Notes under the pieces: model-generated
What the model was told of the DNA's origin: nothing
What the model saw: the letters and a program-made list of their open reading frames with translations, nothing else
Databases searched by the model: none
Made by a program: the position numbers and the translations under genes
IMG/VR virus record: IMGVR_UViG_3300025425_000185
Coordinates: 1-22,103 of that record
DNA: 22,103 bases
Reading direction: 5' to 3' (one strand)
Source of the DNA: a virus
In this document: piece by piece, positions 2,950 through 19,603 of the stretch
How the letters are laid out: the number at the start of each line of letters is the position of its first letter
Numbering within the stretch: the stretch's first letter is position 1

Positions 2950-3307
2950 TCACAAATTGACAGGCAAATTGGCAGGCAAACAAATGAGCACTAACAGATT
3001 GACAGACATCAAACAAACTGACAGACAAACAAACTGACAGACAATCATCTGACAATCATCTGACAATCAAATGAGAGACATCAAACTGACAGACATCAAA
3101 CTGACAGACATCAAACAAACTGACAGACATTGACAGACATCAAACAAACTGACAAACAAACTGACAAACAAACTGACAGACATTGACAGATAGACATTGA
3201 CAGATAGACATTGACAAATTGACAAACAAACTGACAGACATCAAATTATGTATATACATCAAACATACATACATCTGACAGATATACATCAAACATACAT
3301 ACATCTG
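2950..3307. repeat. Degenerate tandem repeat array (TGACAGACATCAAACAAAC words)
   Basis: About 350 bp built from variations of CTGACAGACATCAAACAAA and its fragments (GACAAACAAACTGACA, GACAATCATC, GATAGACATTGACA). Copies differ in length and order, so this is not a CRISPR array with unique spacers. One strand is almost free of G runs. It lies between the leftward structural genes and the rightward cassettes. That position would suit an origin, a packaging region or a genome end, but nothing in the sequence decides which. Confidence 0.85.
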
Positions 3308-3308
3308 A

Positions 3309-3353
3309 CATACATACATACATACATACATACATACATACATACATACATAC
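3309..3353. repeat. (CATA)n microsatellite, about 11 units
   Basis: A pure four-base repeat of about 45 bp that grows out of the end of the preceding degenerate array. Open frames across it on both strands are low-complexity artefacts. Such a tract is prone to slippage, so its length may vary between genomes or be misassembled. Confidence 0.9.
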
Positions 3354-3373
3354 CTACATCTGACCCATCTGGC

Positions 3374-3401
3374 CTACTACCTACTACCTACTACCTACTA
3401 C
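3374..3401. repeat. Four tandem CTACTAC heptamers
   Basis: Four exact copies of a 7-bp unit end at the GC-rich hairpin. The unit shares CTACTA with the dispersed TGCTACTAAG word found from 5768 onward, but this may be coincidence. Confidence 0.85.
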
Positions 3402-5017: not shown

Positions 5018-5022
5018 TGCGT

Positions 5023-5128
5023 GAGCCGTAGGCGCGTAGGCGCGTAGGCGTGAGCGTGAGCGCGTGAGCGCGTGAGCGCGTAGGCGTGAGCGCGTGAGCG
5101 CGTAGGCGTGAGCTCGTGAGCGCGAGTA
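5023..5128. repeat. GC-rich tandem array of GCGTGAG and CGCGTAG heptamers
   Basis: About 105 bp is made of two related 7-bp units, GCGTGAG and CGCGTAG, in mixed order, directly after the cassette 3 terminator and before the cassette 4 promoter. It has no open frame of interest. It may be a slippage-generated spacer or a multi-site binding region. Confidence 0.8.
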
Positions 5129-6764: not shown

Positions 6765-7322
6765 CTAATATCTTTGTACGATAATAGTAACTGGATCCGA
6801 TGTACCTGTATCGTATCTGCTTGCCGCTTGCAATGCCTCTTTGATCATAACCTTAGCACCGCTTAATGTCCTGGGCTTCTTGTTTAAGACATGCAACGCG
6901 CCTAATGCGTATGAGGATCCACTACCTACCGAATATAACCCCGTATCATCTCGAATACATTCATAGCCTCCCCCTACTTCATATAACACCCCGCGAACTG
7001 CAACAATAAATACTGAGTCATGCTCGTTGTCTTTGCCATAGAAATTATTATCAAAGCAAACTTTGAGAGCAGGAACAAAACGGGATACCATAAACTTATC
7101 CAGCCCCTCATCTGGGATCTTCCCTACAATCGGTGGCACGAATGTATGGGTAAGAATATTGACGGCGCGAACATCTCCTGCTGTCCCTATGAGAAACTCA
7201 CCATTAGAAATCAACTTACTAAACGATGATGGCAATCGAAATTTTTTTGACTCCTCACTCACCTGTGAGTCAGCGCCCATAACAGCCCATGAAGATCCTT
7301 GAACTCCAATAATGGTTGTCAC
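6765..7322 (-). CDS. N-terminal-nucleophile hydrolase, HslV / proteasome beta-subunit-like
   Basis: Starting at GTG 7322 the protein reads M-TTIIGVQGSSWAVMGADSQ. Removal of Met exposes Thr1, as in HslV and mature proteasome beta subunits. Counting from Thr1, Asp17 sits in GADSQ and a Lys at position 35 (FSKLI) matches the catalytic Lys33 region. GTAGDVRAVNIL and SVGSGSSYALGAL match the conserved GSG segment, and RYDTGTSDPVTIIV fits the C-terminal strand. The 185-residue length suits a beta-type subunit without propeptide. It would form a ring peptidase that needs an ATPase partner; none lies beside it. The stop codon is formed by the TGCTACTAA repeat. A longer frame upstream would bury the Thr. 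Confidence 0.8.
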   Translation of the reverse strand: MTTIIGVQGSSWAVMGADSQVSEESKKFRLPSSFSKLISNGEFLIGTAGDVRAVNILTHTFVPPIVGKIPDEGLDKFMVSRFVPALKVCFDNNFYGKDNEHDSVFIVAVRGVLYEVGGGYECIRDDTGLYSVGSGSSYALGALHVLNKKPRTLSGAKVMIKEALQAASRYDTGTSDPVTIIVQRY

Positions 7323-7323
7323 C

Positions 7324-7584
7324 CTATGACCCGGACTCCGGATACCACAAAACATCTCTCAACTTAGAATCGTAGATATCTCCTCTCGAATTATGCTTGT
7401 CATGAGAAATGTCCTCGTCATTAAGTAGCGCATCCAACGATAGTACGGCTGTGTATTCAGGCTCATCGAACATAATGACGATCTTTGTTTCTCCTGTGTC
7501 TGGGTCATCGACTATTGCCGCGTAGAAGGGGGCAGCGTGACCATTACTGTGAAAGGAACTCTGAACGATCTCGATGTTAGACAT
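7324..7584 (-). CDS. Unknown phage protein, 86 residues
   Basis: The chosen ATG gives MSNIEIVQSSFHSNGHAAPF, then FYAAIVDD, TAVLSLDALLND and RGDIYDSKLRDVLW. I remember this order of segments (HSNG, FY, D-x2-L, RGD-x-Y-x3-LR) from small proteins in many phages whose role is unknown. A longer GTG-started frame to 7710 would run through a terminator-like hairpin and the A6/T6 palindrome, so I reject it. There is no strong ribosome site before this ATG. The stop lies two bases before the GTG of the HslV-like gene, so the two are probably co-expressed. Confidence 0.65.
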   Translation of the reverse strand: MSNIEIVQSSFHSNGHAAPFYAAIVDDPDTGETKIVIMFDEPEYTAVLSLDALLNDEDISHDKHNSRGDIYDSKLRDVLWYPESGS

Positions 7585-8683: not shown

Positions 8684-8686
8684 GTG

Positions 8687-8759
8687 TGCCCTCGGAGGGA
8701 ATCGAACCCCCAACCTACCGGGTAGAAGCCGGTTATTCTGTCCGTTGAACTACGAGGGC
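8687..8759 (-). tRNA. tRNA-Arg (anticodon UCU)
   Basis: The 73-base cloverleaf is complete: acceptor GCCCTCG with CGAGGGC (7 bp), D arm GTTC/GAAT, anticodon stem ACCGG/CCGGT with loop CTTCTAC giving anticodon UCU, variable loop AGGTT, T arm GGGGG-TTCGATT-CCCTC, and discriminator A. CCA is not encoded. It would read AGA codons and may supply Arg decoding for the phage. It stands alone, preceded by the back-to-back repeat at 8769-8788. Confidence 0.92.
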
Positions 8760-11568: not shown

Positions 11569-11961
11569 TTACTTAGGCAACACCTTAAGGTAGGTGTCAT
11601 GCTTGGTAGCAGCGGTCTTAGCGGTCTCAACTGCTTTGGGATCTCTGTCCATGAGCGTTGCCCAGATGTCGGGGTAGAGTCCCTCTAGTGCTTCGAGAAA
11701 CCCATCTACGCTCACGCTAGTTGTTGCAACTTCTTTGACTTCACAGATGATGTCTCCCTCGACATTGAGGATAAGGCGCGCACGATCTCCCGTGGCAACT
11801 TTGATTGCAACCTTGGCAGCGTCCTCAGCCTTAGTGCACTCTCTCTTAGTAGCACGCATGTTACTCACTTGAGCGATAGCAGCGATAAGTGCGCTGTCTG
11901 CCACTACTGCGCCACGGTGCGAAACGCTAACCGTGCCCTTGTTTGTCTTTTTGATAGTCAT
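11569..11961 (-). CDS. 130-residue protein, paralogue of 15521-15913 (copy A)
   Basis: Starting at ATG 11961 after GAAGGGGTCAAG, it reads MTIKKTNKGTVSVSHRGAVV. It shares the same length and many segments with the gene at 15521: SNMRATK, RARLILN-x-EGDIICE, LYPDIWATLMDRDPKA-x-E, AATK and a VLPK end. The many Lys-Thr and Ala-Thr-Lys pieces are basic; no known domain is recognised. One Ala-Thr-Lys (11845-11854) is an exact repeat copy. The other (near 11606) uses GCT ACC AAG and so lacks the exact repeat. It has its own promoter, 5' hairpin and terminator. Confidence 0.75.
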   Translation of the reverse strand: MTIKKTNKGTVSVSHRGAVVADSALIAAIAQVSNMRATKRECTKAEDAAKVAIKVATGDRARLILNVEGDIICEVKEVATTSVSVDGFLEALEGLYPDIWATLMDRDPKAVETAKTAATKHDTYLKVLPK

Positions 11962-11980
11962 CTTGACCCCTTCACTTTTG

Positions 11981-11995
11981 TACGGGCTTTCCGTA
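11981..11995 (-). promoter_or_regulatory. 5'-terminal hairpin, stem TACGG/CCGTA, loop AAAGC
   Basis: It is a perfect 5-bp stem eight bases after the -10 box. The loop AAAGC recurs at 13643-13657 with another stem. Confidence 0.65.
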
Positions 11996-12003
11996 TAAGT
12001 AGA

Positions 12004-12032
12004 ACAATACACTAAGTGACTGACATGTGCAA
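12004..12032 (-). promoter_or_regulatory. Leftward promoter of paralogue A
   Basis: TTGCAC, 17 bases, TATTGT on the minus strand. A small AACCTA/TAGGTT inverted repeat (12038-12052) and a TGCTACTAAG copy (12067-12076) lie upstream. Confidence 0.7.
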
Positions 12033-15520: not shown

Positions 15521-15913
15521 TTACTTCGGCATAACTCTGTAACTCACTCCCTCTTTAGTAGCAGCGACCTTGGTCAGTTCGATCGCCCTGGGGTCGGAGT
15601 CCATGAGTACCGCCCACTCTTTTGGGTACAGCCGTTCTAGTTCGATGATGAAGTCATCAAGTTTAGTTGTTTCGGCAACAACTTTGATGATCTCGCAAAT
15701 TACGTCCCCGTCCTCATTGAGGATAATTCGAGCGCGGTTCCCAGCAGCCTGCTCCACTAGATCCTTGGCGGTCTTTTCTTTGTTCGTGCATTGCTTCTTA
15801 GTAGCACGCATGTTGCTGATTACTGCTACTGCTTCGGCTACCTCGCCGGTTGCAACCAGCGCGCCCTTATGGGATACCGATACGGTTCCCTTGTTCGTTT
15901 TGCGTATAGCCAT
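15521..15913 (-). CDS. 130-residue protein, paralogue of 11569-11961 (copy B)
   Basis: The ATG at 15913 follows AAGGAGTCCAC. The longer frame to 16117 crosses the promoter. It reads MAIRKTNKGTVSVSHKGALV, with SNMRATKKQCTNKEKTAKDL, RARIILNEDGDVICEI, LYPKEWAVLMDSDPRAIEL, AATK and a VMPK end, aligned over the full length with copy A. The domain is unknown. Both Ala-Thr-Lys codon triplets are repeat copies here. It has its own promoter, a strong 5' hairpin and a terminator. Confidence 0.75.
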   Translation of the reverse strand: MAIRKTNKGTVSVSHKGALVATGEVAEAVAVISNMRATKKQCTNKEKTAKDLVEQAAGNRARIILNEDGDVICEIIKVVAETTKLDDFIIELERLYPKEWAVLMDSDPRAIELTKVAATKEGVSYRVMPK

Positions 15914-15930
15914 GTGGACTCCTTGCTCAT

Positions 15931-15951
15931 CACCACGGGCTGTCCGTGATG
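15931..15951 (-). promoter_or_regulatory. 5'-terminal hairpin, 8-bp stem, loop ACAGC
   Basis: CATCACGG and CCGTGGTG pair over 8 bp with one G-U around ACAGC, five bases after the -10 box. It is the strongest of the leftward 5' hairpins. Confidence 0.7.
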
Positions 15952-15956
15952 TGTTC

Positions 15957-15985
15957 AGTTTAGCAAAGTAGAGTCCAACATGCAA
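15957..15985 (-). promoter_or_regulatory. Leftward promoter of paralogue B
   Basis: TTGCAT, 17 bases, TAAACT on the minus strand. A repeat copy (16019-16028) lies about 33 bp upstream, as before paralogue A. Confidence 0.7.
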
Positions 15986-16042
15986 GCCGTTATCGAAACT
16001 TGATCGCGCGCCGTGTCGTGCTACTAACGTCAGACAAGTCAA

Positions 16043-16068
16043 ACCCCCCACGCCTAAACATGGGGGGT
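16043..16068 (-). terminator. Terminator after the VWA gene
   Basis: ACCCCCCA and TGGGGGGT pair over 8 bp around a 10-base loop. It is flanked by repeat copies in opposite orientation at 16019-16028 and 16107-16116. Confidence 0.75.
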
Positions 16069-16120
16069 GACTTTGTGCGCGTGCCGGACACGAAGGGGAC
16101 AACCTTCTTAGTAGCACGCG

Positions 16121-17926
16121 CTACATCTTGCGCGCCGTTGCGCTTGAGATCGCTTTTTCACATGCAGCACCGATCTTGTCGGCAGCAGCCGTTGGGCTAA
16201 ACCTGCCGGATAGTACGACCGCGTTGTCACCAGCCAATGCCCTAGCCGTTGAACCTTCGTCAAACGGTAGCCATACAACCGCCACGCCCTGTTCAGCGCA
16301 CCGCTTGACCCAGCGTTGGGCAGCGACCGCCTCGTCCCTGACATAGTGACCGTCACTAACAACTACCAGCAGTCTTGCACCCTCGCCGTTTAGCAGGTTG
16401 ATCGAACCGTCAAGAGCAAGGAAAGCGTCATTAAACTTTTCGGTTGCGTCGGAAGCGGTATAGACCTTGACCTGATCCATGCGCTCGCCGGGTCGAAGTG
16501 TGGGGAATACCGTGTTGCCGTAGTAGACCATTGCAGCCTTGCCCTGAACACGGACGGCAGCCTCGCTCAAGACATATGCCGTAGTTGCCATTGGCTCCAT
16601 AGCGTCGCCCATTGAGCCGGAGATATCCACCATGACTCCGATAGTCAATGTGGGTTCGTCCGTTTGTTTGCGAACCTTCTTGCGCCATGCCTCTGGTTGT
16701 GTCATCACTCCGCGCGATTTCATGGCAGCACCTTGAACCGCTGTTCGTGCGCGAAGCCGTCCGGGTGGAGTAATGCTTGACACCTTGGTCACATCACGGT
16801 CGCGGTACTTTGCCTTCTCCAACTTAGTAGCAATAATTGTTGCAGCGATCCGTTCATCTGACCGTGGATTTCGGGTCTCTTTCAACGTAGAGAATGTTCC
16901 GGCTCCAACAACTTCTGCCGTACCAGATCCAAAGATTTTGCTCGCCATTTCTTTGGCATCTTTTCTCTCTTTGGATTTGTCTGACTTTTCTTTGACAACT
17001 TCTTCATACTTTTCCATTGTCTCCGCGTCGCCAAGTGAGTCACTGTTACTAACGGATACGTTGTCGGCAGCCTCGTTTAATGCGTCCATAAGATCTTCCA
17101 TAAACTCGTTGCCTTCGCCTTCGCCTTCGCCTTCGCCTTCGCCTTTGCCTTCGCCAGAGTCCGGGGAACCTTCGCCTTTTTCCTCTGCTACCTCGCGCAC
17201 AATCTTTGCCCACTCAATCGCAATCGGGTACATATCGGTAGCGTCATAATGATAGCCATGCCTCTGTGCCTTAGTAGCAAGATCGCGCAACTCTGCAATC
17301 ACATCTAGCCCTAAGTATTCGTCAATCAAGTCCGTAACTTTTGCGACATCTCGAAACTTTAGAATCCCAAGATCAACACGCGCCCAAACTAATGCGACCA
17401 GTAGGGCAGCCTTCTCTGTGCTACTCATCTCTGCAAACTGTTCGCCAGCGTCTGCGATAACAATTTCCATAGCGCAAGTCTCAAGGAAAGGCTTTGCTTT
17501 TGGATTCGACCGAATACCGTGTGCTTCGATCCGACTTTCCTCTAGCAGCATCAAAGCCTCAAACTCATCTTTCTTTAGATCTTTTCGTGCCTCTAGTAGA
17601 TCCCACTTTGAGAACTTTGCATGAAAGGCTTCGTGCAAGATCGCACCGACAGCGCGTGGAAACTCGTAGCGTCCTGACCGCGTAGTCAAGTCAATGTCGG
17701 CAGGCTCTACGCCATAACCGAAAGCAACGTCTACGTTCACCTCAACCTCTGCGCTTGCAGGTATGAAACATGCAGGGGCTTCTCCACCAGCACCAGATCC
17801 AACGTAGGCAATAATGTCTGACCGATCTGACCACTCATTTGCGAGTGCGCCAACCTGACTGCCAACTCTCAACCACTTAGGGTCTGTCATCTCTGCGCGT
17901 GTTCCGTCAATTTTGTAGTGTCCCAT
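16121..17926 (-). CDS. VWA-domain protein with N-terminal metallopeptidase-like motif
   Basis: This 601-residue protein starts after AAAGGACACAAA. The N-terminal domain has HEAFH at 98-102 and a downstream LLEESRIEAHG (128-138) that could supply the third ligand, the layout of the DUF2201-type putative metallopeptidase domain. Residues 250-275 are a Gly-Glu repeat (GEGEGEGEGE). The C-terminal VWA domain has the metal-site motif DISGSM (435-440), later Thr/Asp (ASDAT, VVVSDGHY near 526). Such VWA proteins work with MoxR AAA+ ATPases, and one is encoded directly upstream. They probably act together in remodelling a protein complex. In-frame repeat copies code IIATK and LATK. Confidence 0.85.
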   Translation of the reverse strand: MGHYKIDGTRAEMTDPKWLRVGSQVGALANEWSDRSDIIAYVGSGAGGEAPACFIPASAEVEVNVDVAFGYGVEPADIDLTTRSGRYEFPRAVGAILHEAFHAKFSKWDLLEARKDLKKDEFEALMLLEESRIEAHGIRSNPKAKPFLETCAMEIVIADAGEQFAEMSSTEKAALLVALVWARVDLGILKFRDVAKVTDLIDEYLGLDVIAELRDLATKAQRHGYHYDATDMYPIAIEWAKIVREVAEEKGEGSPDSGEGKGEGEGEGEGEGNEFMEDLMDALNEAADNVSVSNSDSLGDAETMEKYEEVVKEKSDKSKERKDAKEMASKIFGSGTAEVVGAGTFSTLKETRNPRSDERIAATIIATKLEKAKYRDRDVTKVSSITPPGRLRARTAVQGAAMKSRGVMTQPEAWRKKVRKQTDEPTLTIGVMVDISGSMGDAMEPMATTAYVLSEAAVRVQGKAAMVYYGNTVFPTLRPGERMDQVKVYTASDATEKFNDAFLALDGSINLLNGEGARLLVVVSDGHYVRDEAVAAQRWVKRCAEQGVAVVWLPFDEGSTARALAGDNAVVLSGRFSPTAAADKIGAACEKAISSATARKM

Positions 17927-17996
17927 TTTGTGTCCTTTGTTTAGTGTCCGATTACTTATGGAAAGCGTATCACCATGCTACTAAGAATGGAAGGGT

Positions 17997-18026
17997 GGGG
18001 GAGTCAGCACCTACACCGACTCCCCC
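17997..18026 (-). terminator. Hairpin between the MoxR and VWA genes
   Basis: GGGGGAGTC and GACTCCCCC pair over 9 bp around 12 bases. No T-tract follows, so it may be a partial terminator or a processing site that sets the MoxR:VWA ratio. Beyond it lie a repeat copy (17976-17985) and a TGATACGCT -10-like box that could give the VWA gene its own promoter. Confidence 0.6.
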
Positions 18027-18045
18027 GATCTGCCAGATCGAAGGA

Positions 18046-19086
18046 TTAGATCTTGGCAGGCTTGCACTCACTACCGAACGCTCGCGTCAGTACGTCAGCG
18101 ACGACTGGGCGGTCAATTTCGGGTGCAGCAGCGAGTAGGTTTGATATGGCGAACGGGACTCCGAACGATACGGATATATCGCGGAAGGCCAGTAGTTCGC
18201 GCATTTGTGGAGACCATGAAACTTCGTGGCTCGCTTGCTTCTTGGCTAGATTCTGTGCAGCCGTCACCATAGTGGTGCTTACGCCTAGTTTGCGTGACAG
18301 ACTCCAATCTGTTGTCATCTCTGCCTGAATAGTGAACCGCGACAGCAAAGCCTCTGACAACCGAACGCCGGGTGCGTTTGGGTTAGTAGCAGCGATTACA
18401 TAGAACTCTGGGTGAGCCTTGACTGTGCCTCGCTCTGGGTTTGCGGTGACAGTGATCTCGCGCCGTCCGTCCATGAGTCCGTACACAATGGAGAGAACCT
18501 TCGGATCAATGAGTCCGACCTCATCTATGAAGTAGACTCCACCAGTTTCGGCAGCCTTTAAGAGATCGCCGTCCAACCACTCGAAGCCACCACTAGGTGT
18601 CTGAATATATCCACCGATCATGTCTGCCACTTCGGTATCGCCAGTCCCCAAGATCGTGTAGATATTATCACCGAAAGCAGCCTCAACTAGTGCAGTCTTT
18701 CCGCAGCCGGGTGCGCCGTAGAGCAGCGAGAACATTGGAGAGCCGGAACTTTCTGTGAAGGCTTGCGCCGTAACTTCACGCGCCTTGCGTAGGGCAGCGA
18801 CATCTCCATGCTCTCCCCATTCGCGGGTGTGATAGATCATTCCATTAGGTCGCAGATATTCGGTATCTGCATCTAATGACTCAACGGTGGGAAGTGCCTT
18901 TGGAGTCTTTGGCTTGCGTGTCCCATTTGCAGCACGTTCGACGTACCGACCCTGTGGCAATACCTCTGATGACAATTTCATAGCAGACTCTGGTACGTCC
19001 ATTTGTGCAGCGACTTCGACAACCATGCTCCAGAACTTTGTTGGCTCTGAGACTGATCCGATATTTGCAAACTTTTCTGATAACAT
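18046..19086 (-). CDS. MoxR-like AAA+ ATPase
   Basis: The start at 19086 follows AAGGAT at six bases. An ATG at 19125 has no site and reads through the repeat. In the 346-residue protein the Walker A motif GAPGCGKT is at about 124-131, Walker B VYFIDEVG at about 184-191, sensor 1 VIAATNPNAPG at about 230-240 and an Arg-finger-like LLSRF near 250. GGYIQTPSGGFEWLDGDLLK before Walker B fits the MoxR/CbbQ type. It hydrolyses ATP to remodel a target together with a VWA partner, here the next gene. A repeat-like copy is read as AATN within sensor 1, where the protein motif itself explains it. Confidence 0.88.
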   Translation of the reverse strand: MLSEKFANIGSVSEPTKFWSMVVEVAAQMDVPESAMKLSSEVLPQGRYVERAANGTRKPKTPKALPTVESLDADTEYLRPNGMIYHTREWGEHGDVAALRKAREVTAQAFTESSGSPMFSLLYGAPGCGKTALVEAAFGDNIYTILGTGDTEVADMIGGYIQTPSGGFEWLDGDLLKAAETGGVYFIDEVGLIDPKVLSIVYGLMDGRREITVTANPERGTVKAHPEFYVIAATNPNAPGVRLSEALLSRFTIQAEMTTDWSLSRKLGVSTTMVTAAQNLAKKQASHEVSWSPQMRELLAFRDISVSFGVPFAISNLLAAAPEIDRPVVADVLTRAFGSECKPAKI

Positions 19087-19111
19087 TTTTTTATCCTTCG
19101 GCTCGTTGCTA

Positions 19112-19603
19112 CTAAATAGTGGCAAGTGTAGGTGTTGTGGTTATTTCTTCATTTACAACGTCAGTTGGATATCCCGGAATCATTAGACGGGATTGCGTGA
19201 TGCGATAAAGCAATTTGGTAGGTGTCTTGTTTATGGAGATATGATCCATATCCATTTTGGAGACCTCAACCAGAATTGGATCTGCTACTAAGAACCAATC
19301 TCCGCGTGCCAGTTGCTCGAACAATGACGAGGCGTACCTCATGCGATTGTCGCAGTAGATCTCTTTTAGAGCGTCTACGTTTGACCCTGCGTAGGTTGTA
19401 ATTGGGTCAGTGGTAGATAGTGTGCTGAAACGCCATTGCTTGCGTGGTGTAGATAGGCTGATTGTTCGGCGCACAATGTGCATCTGAACCTTGTCGCCTG
19501 CTGTGTTGCGTCCGTCAGGAGTAACAATAACCTGCGTGGTGGTGCCGGGGCGTACAAACTCGCCATAAACGGCGATCCCCTGAACTGACTTAGTAACGTC
19601 CAT
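19112..19603 (-). CDS. Unknown 163-residue protein before the MoxR gene
   Basis: The start follows GAAGGAAATAAA. The protein (MDVTKSVQGIAVYGEFVRPG) looks beta-rich with segments TTQVIVTPDGR, FEQLARGDWFLVADPILVEV and KLLYRITQSRLMIPGY. No family is recognised. It is the first gene after the promoter at 19649-19677 and directly precedes MoxR, so it may be a substrate or adaptor of that system; this is inference from position only. Its stop codons TAG TAG belong to a repeat copy (19107-19116). Another copy (19283-19292) lies in frame as LVA. Confidence 0.65.
   Translation of the reverse strand: MDVTKSVQGIAVYGEFVRPGTTTQVIVTPDGRNTAGDKVQMHIVRRTISLSTPRKQWRFSTLSTTDPITTYAGSNVDALKEIYCDNRMRYASSLFEQLARGDWFLVADPILVEVSKMDMDHISINKTPTKLLYRITQSRLMIPGYPTDVVNEEITTTPTLATI

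What the first reader, a model, noticed from the sequence alone, without database searches (positions are those of the whole stretch)
6765..7322. Phage-encoded HslV / proteasome-beta-like threonine hydrolase
With the GTG start, Thr is residue 2 and becomes the N-terminal nucleophile after Met removal. Asp17 and a Lys at 35 are in the expected places, and the GSG segment is present. A phage carrying its own ring peptidase subunit could degrade host proteins, replace host proteasome parts, or act in capsid maturation. There is no obvious HslU or Mpa-like partner beside it, though a MoxR ATPase is encoded 11 kb away.
Basis: partly seen in the sequence, partly recalled or inferred. Interest (0 to 1): 0.75.

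Follow-up and report, generated by a model that had tools for sequence, protein, structure and literature searches.

The report
Phage proteasome-like threonine peptidase subunit
This virus of (probably) freshwater actinobacteria carries a gene for a proteasome-like protein-cutting subunit with an intact active site; such genes were already known in many phages, but none has a known job, and this one belongs to a distinct actinobacterial-phage branch that lacks the ATP-driven partner such proteases usually have.

Summary
The gene is on the minus strand (7322→6765, GTG, 185 aa); the + strand of the interval is full of stops. The protein hits Pfam Proteasome (1.6e-7) and PHROG 1040 'peptidase HslV family' (1e-24). 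AlphaFold gives a proteasome-type Ntn fold (pLDDT 96); best solved match is the stand-alone bacterial homologue BPH (TM 0.80), then HslV. The start is secure: all 253 phage relatives begin Met-Thr (one Met-Ser) and 210 have no possible upstream start. Thr2, Asp18, Lys36, Gly49, Gly133/135 and Asp171 are (nearly) invariant. It is not HslV proper: 37 bits against a cut-off of 137, no HslU-type ATPase in 21 of 22 relative genomes, a longer acidic pore loop, a separate branch in the tree. It is not the capsid protease (its best relative, DSL-LC01, has its own). The MoxR ATPase is a CobS/CobT-type pair that many relatives lack. Phage proteasome homologues were catalogued in 2021 (PPH, AAH), with no actinobacterial phage encoding AAH; this clade, rich in WhiB and including Microbacterium and Arthrobacter phages, is a separate sister branch. 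A conserved 86-aa gene lies directly upstream in many members, a lead for function. New member of a known kind.

The parts
6765..7322 (-). Proteasome/HslV-like N-terminal-threonine peptidase subunit, 185 aa, GTG start
   Evidence: Translation; Pfam PF00227; PHROG 1040; AF2 pLDDT 96.1, pTM 0.91; Foldseek BPH/HslV
7317..7319 (-). Codon of Thr2 (ACA), the predicted nucleophile Thr1 after Met removal
   Evidence: 61 of 62 clade sequences Thr, 1 Ser; start position fixed by upstream stops in 210/253 relatives
7269..7271 (-). Codon of Asp18 (mature Asp17), catalytic triad
   Evidence: Invariant 62/62 and in the 109-sequence alignment
7215..7217 (-). Codon of Lys36 (mature Lys35; the proteasome Lys33 position), catalytic triad
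   Evidence: Invariant 62/62 and in the 109-sequence alignment
7014..7052 (-). Pore-loop segment between helix H2 and the next strand (residues 91-103): 13 residues, acidic; HslV has 11 with net positive charge
   Evidence: Alignment comparison; helix and strand limits from the model
6918..6926 (-). GSG segment (residues 133-135), proteasome Ser129 region
   Evidence: G133 and G135 invariant
6810..6812 (-). Codon of Asp171 (proteasome Asp166 position)
   Evidence: 61/62 Asp, 1 Glu
7324..7584 (-). Conserved 86-aa gene of unknown family directly upstream (one base between its stop and the GTG); candidate regulator/adaptor
   Evidence: Adjacent in 43 of 81 clade loci at offsets -67..+3 nt; independent scan: 68 of 80 loci have the peptidase within 75 nt, 6 lack it in the record held; no Pfam, PDB fold or INPHARED match
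18046..19125 (-). AAA_5 (MoxR/CobS-like) ATPase; considered as unfoldase partner and judged unlikely
   Evidence: PF07728 8.2e-21; AAA_5 absent from 8 of 22 relatives that carry the peptidase
16121..17926 (-). CobT/VWA-like protein, the usual companion of the CobS-like ATPase
   Evidence: Homologous to the DSL-LC01 gene annotated cobalamin biosynthesis protein

Best explanation
The gene encodes an active, homo-oligomeric, self-compartmentalising N-terminal-threonine peptidase of the proteasome superfamily (group I of Fuchs, Alva and Lupas 2021, beside HslV and BPH). Host methionine aminopeptidase removes the initiator Met, exposing Thr1; Asp17, Lys35 and the backbone around Gly48 form the classical catalytic site. 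There is no propeptide. Subunits most likely stack as a double ring with the active sites inside (inferred from the fold, not shown). As in BPH, entry is controlled by a longer acidic pore loop rather than by an HslU-type unfoldase, so it probably works without a dedicated ATPase, on unfolded, small or adaptor-delivered proteins, as an accessory (non-structural) function during infection of an actinobacterium. Shown: gene, start, fold (prediction), conserved active site, lack of a cognate AAA_2 unfoldase in relatives, accessory gene position, actinophage context. Inferred: ring assembly, ATP independence, substrates and biological role.
For: Fold and family. Start and active site. No HslU/ClpX-type AAA_2 in 21 of 22 whole records; the complete 41-kb Arthrobacter phage Pitbull has the peptidase and no AAA, AAA_2 or AAA_5 match. 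Pore loop 13-21 aa, mean net charge -3.3 in the clade against 11 aa, +1.4 in 12 bacterial HslV; BPH has the same trait and no known unfoldase (PMC5777263). Accessory position among small and nucleotide-metabolism genes. Actinobacterial host: WhiB in 19 of 28 clade records, control 1 of 14; DSL-LC01 predicted to infect Actinomycetia (PMC10611076); Microbacterium and Arthrobacter phages in the same branch.
Against: Oligomer not modelled; only a monomer prediction exists. BPH itself was inert on standard substrates (PMC5777263), so peptidase activity of such stand-alone homologues has not been shown in vitro there. The proteasome Ser169 position is Thr here. Absence of an unfoldase in the phage does not exclude use of a host ATPase (ClpX/ClpC/Mpa). 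No BPH or PrcB sequences were available for the tree.
Confidence: 0.62

Rival explanations
1. It is a true HslV-type subunit that docks onto a host or phage AAA+ unfoldase (host Mpa/ARC or ClpX/ClpC, or the CobS/MoxR ATPase in the window) and degrades unfolded host proteins with ATP.
For: Closest named family in sequence searches is HslV; a CobS-like ATPase lies 5-10 kb upstream in 25 clade loci.
Against: HslV curated cut-off missed (37 against 137 bits); for the top HslV the profile matches only the ends and not the middle H1-H2 region; HslV's basic pore residues are replaced by acidic ones; AAA_2 absent in 21/22 records and AAA_5 absent in 8 of 22; HslV has no entry for Actinobacteria in Table 1 of PMC8665760; the CobS-like ATPase is paired with a CobT/VWA gene instead.
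Confidence: 0.2
2. It is a prohead/capsid maturation protease or virion component.
For: Phage heads are matured by self-assembling proteases; the gene lies a few kb from terminase and portal.
Against: DSL-LC01, same gene order, has a head-maturation protease (phrog_18402, 1.4e-58) between portal and major capsid protein; in other phages the gene sits among nucleotide-metabolism and small accessory genes.
Confidence: 0.04
3. It acts with the 86-aa upstream protein as a dedicated two-gene module: the small acidic protein is an adaptor, inhibitor or gate for the peptidase.
For: Most conserved neighbour; locked adjacency (-67..+3 nt) in 43/81 loci while the next neighbour drifts by 1 kb; 68 of 80 loci found through the small gene alone carry the peptidase within 75 nt.
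Against: The other half of the clade, and all other phage peptidases tested, lack it; six loci of about three lineages, one on a 127-kb contig, have the small gene without a peptidase in the record held, so it must have some use of its own; shared order may only reflect common descent.
Confidence: 0.2
4. It is an Ntn enzyme that has left general proteolysis, for example a specific amidase or protein ligase like the monomeric homologue connectase.
For: Connectase shows that the fold can do this (PMC8665760); no activity is known for phage members.
Against: Compact subunit with both helix pairs and no active-site-covering insertion; the conserved acidic pore loop fits a ring.
Confidence: 0.1

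Closest known systems
PHROG 1040 'peptidase HslV family' (phage family)
   Same: Window protein and all 109 aligned phage relatives match it; N-terminal Thr, Asp, Lys, GSG conserved
   Different: Nothing that excludes membership; PHROG gives no tested function
BPH, betaproteobacterial proteasome homologue (PDB 5ovs/5ovt/5ovu; PMC5777263)
   Same: Best fold match, TM 0.80; no propeptide; longer acidic pore loop; no partner unfoldase
   Different: About 20% identity; found in actinobacterial phages, not betaproteobacteria; 14-mer assembly untested
HslV (ClpQ/CodW) of HslVU
   Same: Fold (TM about 0.7), TT-I start, Asp17, Lys, GSG segment
   Different: Below curated cut-off, separated by a long supported branch, pore loop longer and acidic, no HslU
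AAH and PPH, phage-borne proteasome homologues of Fuchs, Alva and Lupas 2021 (PMC8665760)
   Same: Group I, spread by phages, no co-occurring AAA+ partner noted there either
   Different: Has helix H2 that PPH lacks; groups apart from the Streptomyces, Rhizobium and Paraburkholderia plasmid proteins used as AAH stand-ins; that study found no actinobacterial phage with AAH
Actinobacterial 20S proteasome PrcB
   Same: Fold, catalytic residues
   Different: PrcB has a propeptide and alpha partners; match weak (17.5 bits against 191.9)

Membership tests
PHROG 1040 peptidase HslV family | Profile match over the full protein | tested here: met
   E 1.1e-24, residues 1-183; 109/109 relatives
Proteasome superfamily (PF00227) | Score over gathering cut-off and Ntn four-layer fold | tested here: met
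   31.6 bits against 22.4; AF2 model matched to BPH, HslV and 20S beta
Proteasome superfamily (PF00227) | N-terminal Thr/Ser exposed, Asp17, Lys33, oxyanion Gly | tested here: met
HslV (TIGR03692 / NF003964) | Score over the equivalog cut-off | tested here: not met
   36.1 against 157.75 and 37.4 against 137 bits
HslV (TIGR03692 / NF003964) | Genomic or functional partner HslU | tested here: not met
   No AAA_2 in 21 of 22 relative records; the window is a fragment, so its own genome is not fully tested
HslV (TIGR03692 / NF003964) | Short basic H2-S7 pore region | tested here: not met
   13-21 aa, net -3.3 against 11 aa, +1.4
BPH | Best structural similarity and long acidic pore loop | tested here: met
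   definition from PMC5777263
BPH | Phylogenetic grouping with BPH sequences | not tested
   BPH sequences were not obtained with these tools
BPH | Tetradecameric double ring | not testable with these tools
   Only monomer prediction available
PPH (PMC8665760) | About 140 residues, helix H2 missing | tested here: not met
   185 aa, H2 at 71-92 in the model
AAH (PMC8665760) | Clusters with actinobacterial/alphaproteobacterial homologues | tested here: inconclusive
   Streptomyces, Rhizobium and Paraburkholderia plasmid homologues fall in another clade (SH-aLRT 98), window clade separate (89); AAH reference alignment not available
Prohead/capsid maturation protease | In the head module, protease next to portal and capsid genes | tested here: not met

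The most novel reading that the evidence does not exclude
A branch of actinobacterial phages carries its own ATP-independent proteasome-like chamber, gated by an acidic loop and served by a dedicated small adaptor encoded in the adjacent gene, which selectively destroys host or defence proteins during infection: a two-gene phage degradation system with no AAA+ motor.
Probability: 0.13. Interest if true: 0.7.

Novelty: new member of a known kind. Interest (0 to 1): 0.36.

Why it matters
Proteasome-like peptidases are spread through hundreds of phages, yet I found no paper that gives any of them a function or partner; the 2021 survey reported no informative gene context and no actinobacterial phage with AAH. 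Here there is an actinophage branch with an intact active site, no dedicated motor and a tightly linked small gene, which gives a concrete pair to co-express and test. If active, it would be a virus-borne protein-degradation chamber that works without ATP.

Tried and rejected
Upstream ATG at 7355 as true start: rejected, relatives have stops in that stretch and all start M-T or M-S. Capsid protease: rejected. MoxR/CobS as unfoldase: rejected as conserved partner. Search for cellular relatives in GTDB genomes: the first alignment gave no usable pattern, the next scan no relatives, the last one contig of a gammaproteobacterial MAG (L257), possibly a misbinned phage contig, not pursued. The place relative to AAH used plasmid proteins as stand-ins because the published alignments could not be obtained. 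The upstream 86-aa gene as strict partner: weakened, because 6 of 80 loci found by it have no peptidase in the record held. Fold search of the 86-aa protein: no significant match (model pLDDT 77). Literature searches for phage HslV function: nothing. PADLOC: no match for the peptidase.

Full report
What is there. The window is a whole 22,103-base IMG/VR virus record, a fragment. The reported interval holds a gene on the minus strand: GTG at 7322-7320, stop ending at 6765, 185 residues. Four further IMG/VR contigs carry an identical protein.

Is it real. The protein matches Pfam PF00227 Proteasome above the gathering score, PHROG 1040 'peptidase HslV family' at 1e-24, and HslV chains in the PDB at 3e-6 alone or 5.5e-16 as a 109-sequence profile. 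AlphaFold2 on that alignment gives mean pLDDT 96.1 and pTM 0.91, with the strand/helix order of a proteasome subunit: helices 51-59, 71-92, 136-146, 153-170 and no C-terminal H5. Foldseek against the PDB returns over a thousand matches at E <= 0.001, those listed being proteasome-type chains led by BPH (TM 0.80) and HslV (about 0.7); against viral models, phage proteins including one annotated HslV (TM 0.94).

Start and active site. In 253 phage relatives the protein starts Met-Thr (252) or Met-Ser (1); 210 have no in-frame start codon between the previous stop and that position. Two of the scans were seeded with that N-terminus, but the one seeded on the GSG segment shows the same. So the threonine is residue 2 and is exposed by removal of Met (established rule for Met-Thr, not tested here). 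Asp18, Lys36, Ala48-Gly49, Gly133 and Gly135 are invariant in 62 distinct sequences of the clade, Thr2 and Asp171 in 61. A decayed or non-catalytic protein would not be expected to keep this set.

Which family. Known phage relatives are many: Geobacillus E3, Psychrobacter D'Alembert, Vibrio, Salmonella and Escherichia phages, jumbo phages, Microbacterium phage Pumpernickel, Arthrobacter phages Pitbull and Hum25, and the lake phage DSL-LC01. IMG/VR scans confirmed 517, 314 and 371 relatives in three separate, possibly overlapping lists. A maximum-likelihood tree (quick search, SH-aLRT support) puts cellular HslV on a long, supported branch of its own; phage proteins with MTCI starts form a clade (98) with Streptomyces, Rhizobium and Paraburkholderia plasmid proteins; the window, DSL-LC01, Pumpernickel and Pitbull form a separate clade (89). 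The tool warns of long branches, and BPH and PrcB are not in the tree.

Fuchs, Alva and Lupas (PMC8665760) named 22 proteasome-like subfamilies, two of them widespread in phages: PPH (about 140 residues, lacking helix H2) and AAH. The window protein has H2, so it is not PPH. Whether it is AAH in their sense could not be decided; by the plasmid stand-ins it is a sister group. They reported no actinobacterial phage with AAH, no gene context suggestive of function and no AAA+ partner. The present clade is most likely actinophage: WhiB, absent from 13 of 14 control genomes, occurs in 19 of 28 clade records, DSL-LC01 is a predicted Actinomycetia phage (PMC10611076), and two members were isolated on Microbacterium and Arthrobacter. 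The window's own closest contigs showed no WhiB, but they are fragments.

How it probably works. HslV needs HslU; this branch has no HslU/ClpX-type AAA_2 domain in any of the clade records searched, and only one jumbo phage outside it does. The MoxR-like ATPase in the window is AAA_5 of CobS type next to a CobT/VWA gene, as in DSL-LC01; AAA_5 is missing from Pitbull, E3, J2-1, D'Alembert and four clade contigs, and Pitbull, a complete 41-kb genome, has no AAA match at all. The loop between H2 and the next strand, which in HslV is a short basic linker and in BPH a long acidic gate (PMC5777263), is 13-21 residues with mean net charge -3.3 in this clade against 11 residues and +1.4 in 12 HslV. 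This points to a BPH-like, unfoldase-independent ring. Ring formation, ATP independence and substrate are inference; BPH itself was inert on standard substrates.

Capsid maturation is unlikely: DSL-LC01 has a head-maturation protease between portal and major capsid gene, and in other phages the gene lies among nucleotide-metabolism and small accessory genes.

A lead. The gene directly upstream (7584-7324, 86 aa) is the most conserved neighbour: 43 of 81 loci, always within -67 to +3 nt, while the next neighbour drifts by a kilobase. An independent scan with this small protein found the peptidase within 75 nt in 68 of 80 loci. But six loci of about three lineages have it without a peptidase in the record held, one of them 127 kb long, and half of the clade lacks it. 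It may be an adaptor or regulator, or only a stable neighbour. It has no known family and no clear fold.

Verdict. The finding is correct in substance and belongs to a known phage family; what is added is the actinophage branch, the lack of a motor, the acidic gate and the linked small gene.

Noticed in passing
window 16121-19125: CobS-like AAA_5 ATPase and CobT/VWA-like protein pair, up to 71% identical to relatives in other actinophage contigs, more conserved than the peptidase
   Followed up: partly
window 3013-3401: Cluster of short tandem repeats (periods 4, 12, 14, 15, 30) in a stretch without a clear gene; another with period 22/8 (GCGTGAGC) at 5019-5124
   Followed up: no
window 11569-12012 and 15521-16117: Two ORFs with similar sequence (TIKKTNKGTVSVSHRGAVVA... 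/ AIRKTNKGTVSVSHKGALVA...), an apparent gene duplication
   Followed up: no
window 8686-8759: tRNA-Arg (tct) on the minus strand
   Followed up: no
L015:8001-9167: Pseudoalteromonas phage J2-1 has the peptidase fused to a C-terminal stretch of about 200 residues of unknown kind
   Followed up: no
L257:6380-6982: Relative (37%) on a contig binned in a gammaproteobacterial MAG, the only match in the GTDB genome collection by that scan; possibly a misbinned phage contig
   Followed up: no
L007:12001-12690: DSL-LC01 peptidase has a lysine/arginine-rich C-terminal tail of about 40 residues not present in the window protein
   Followed up: no
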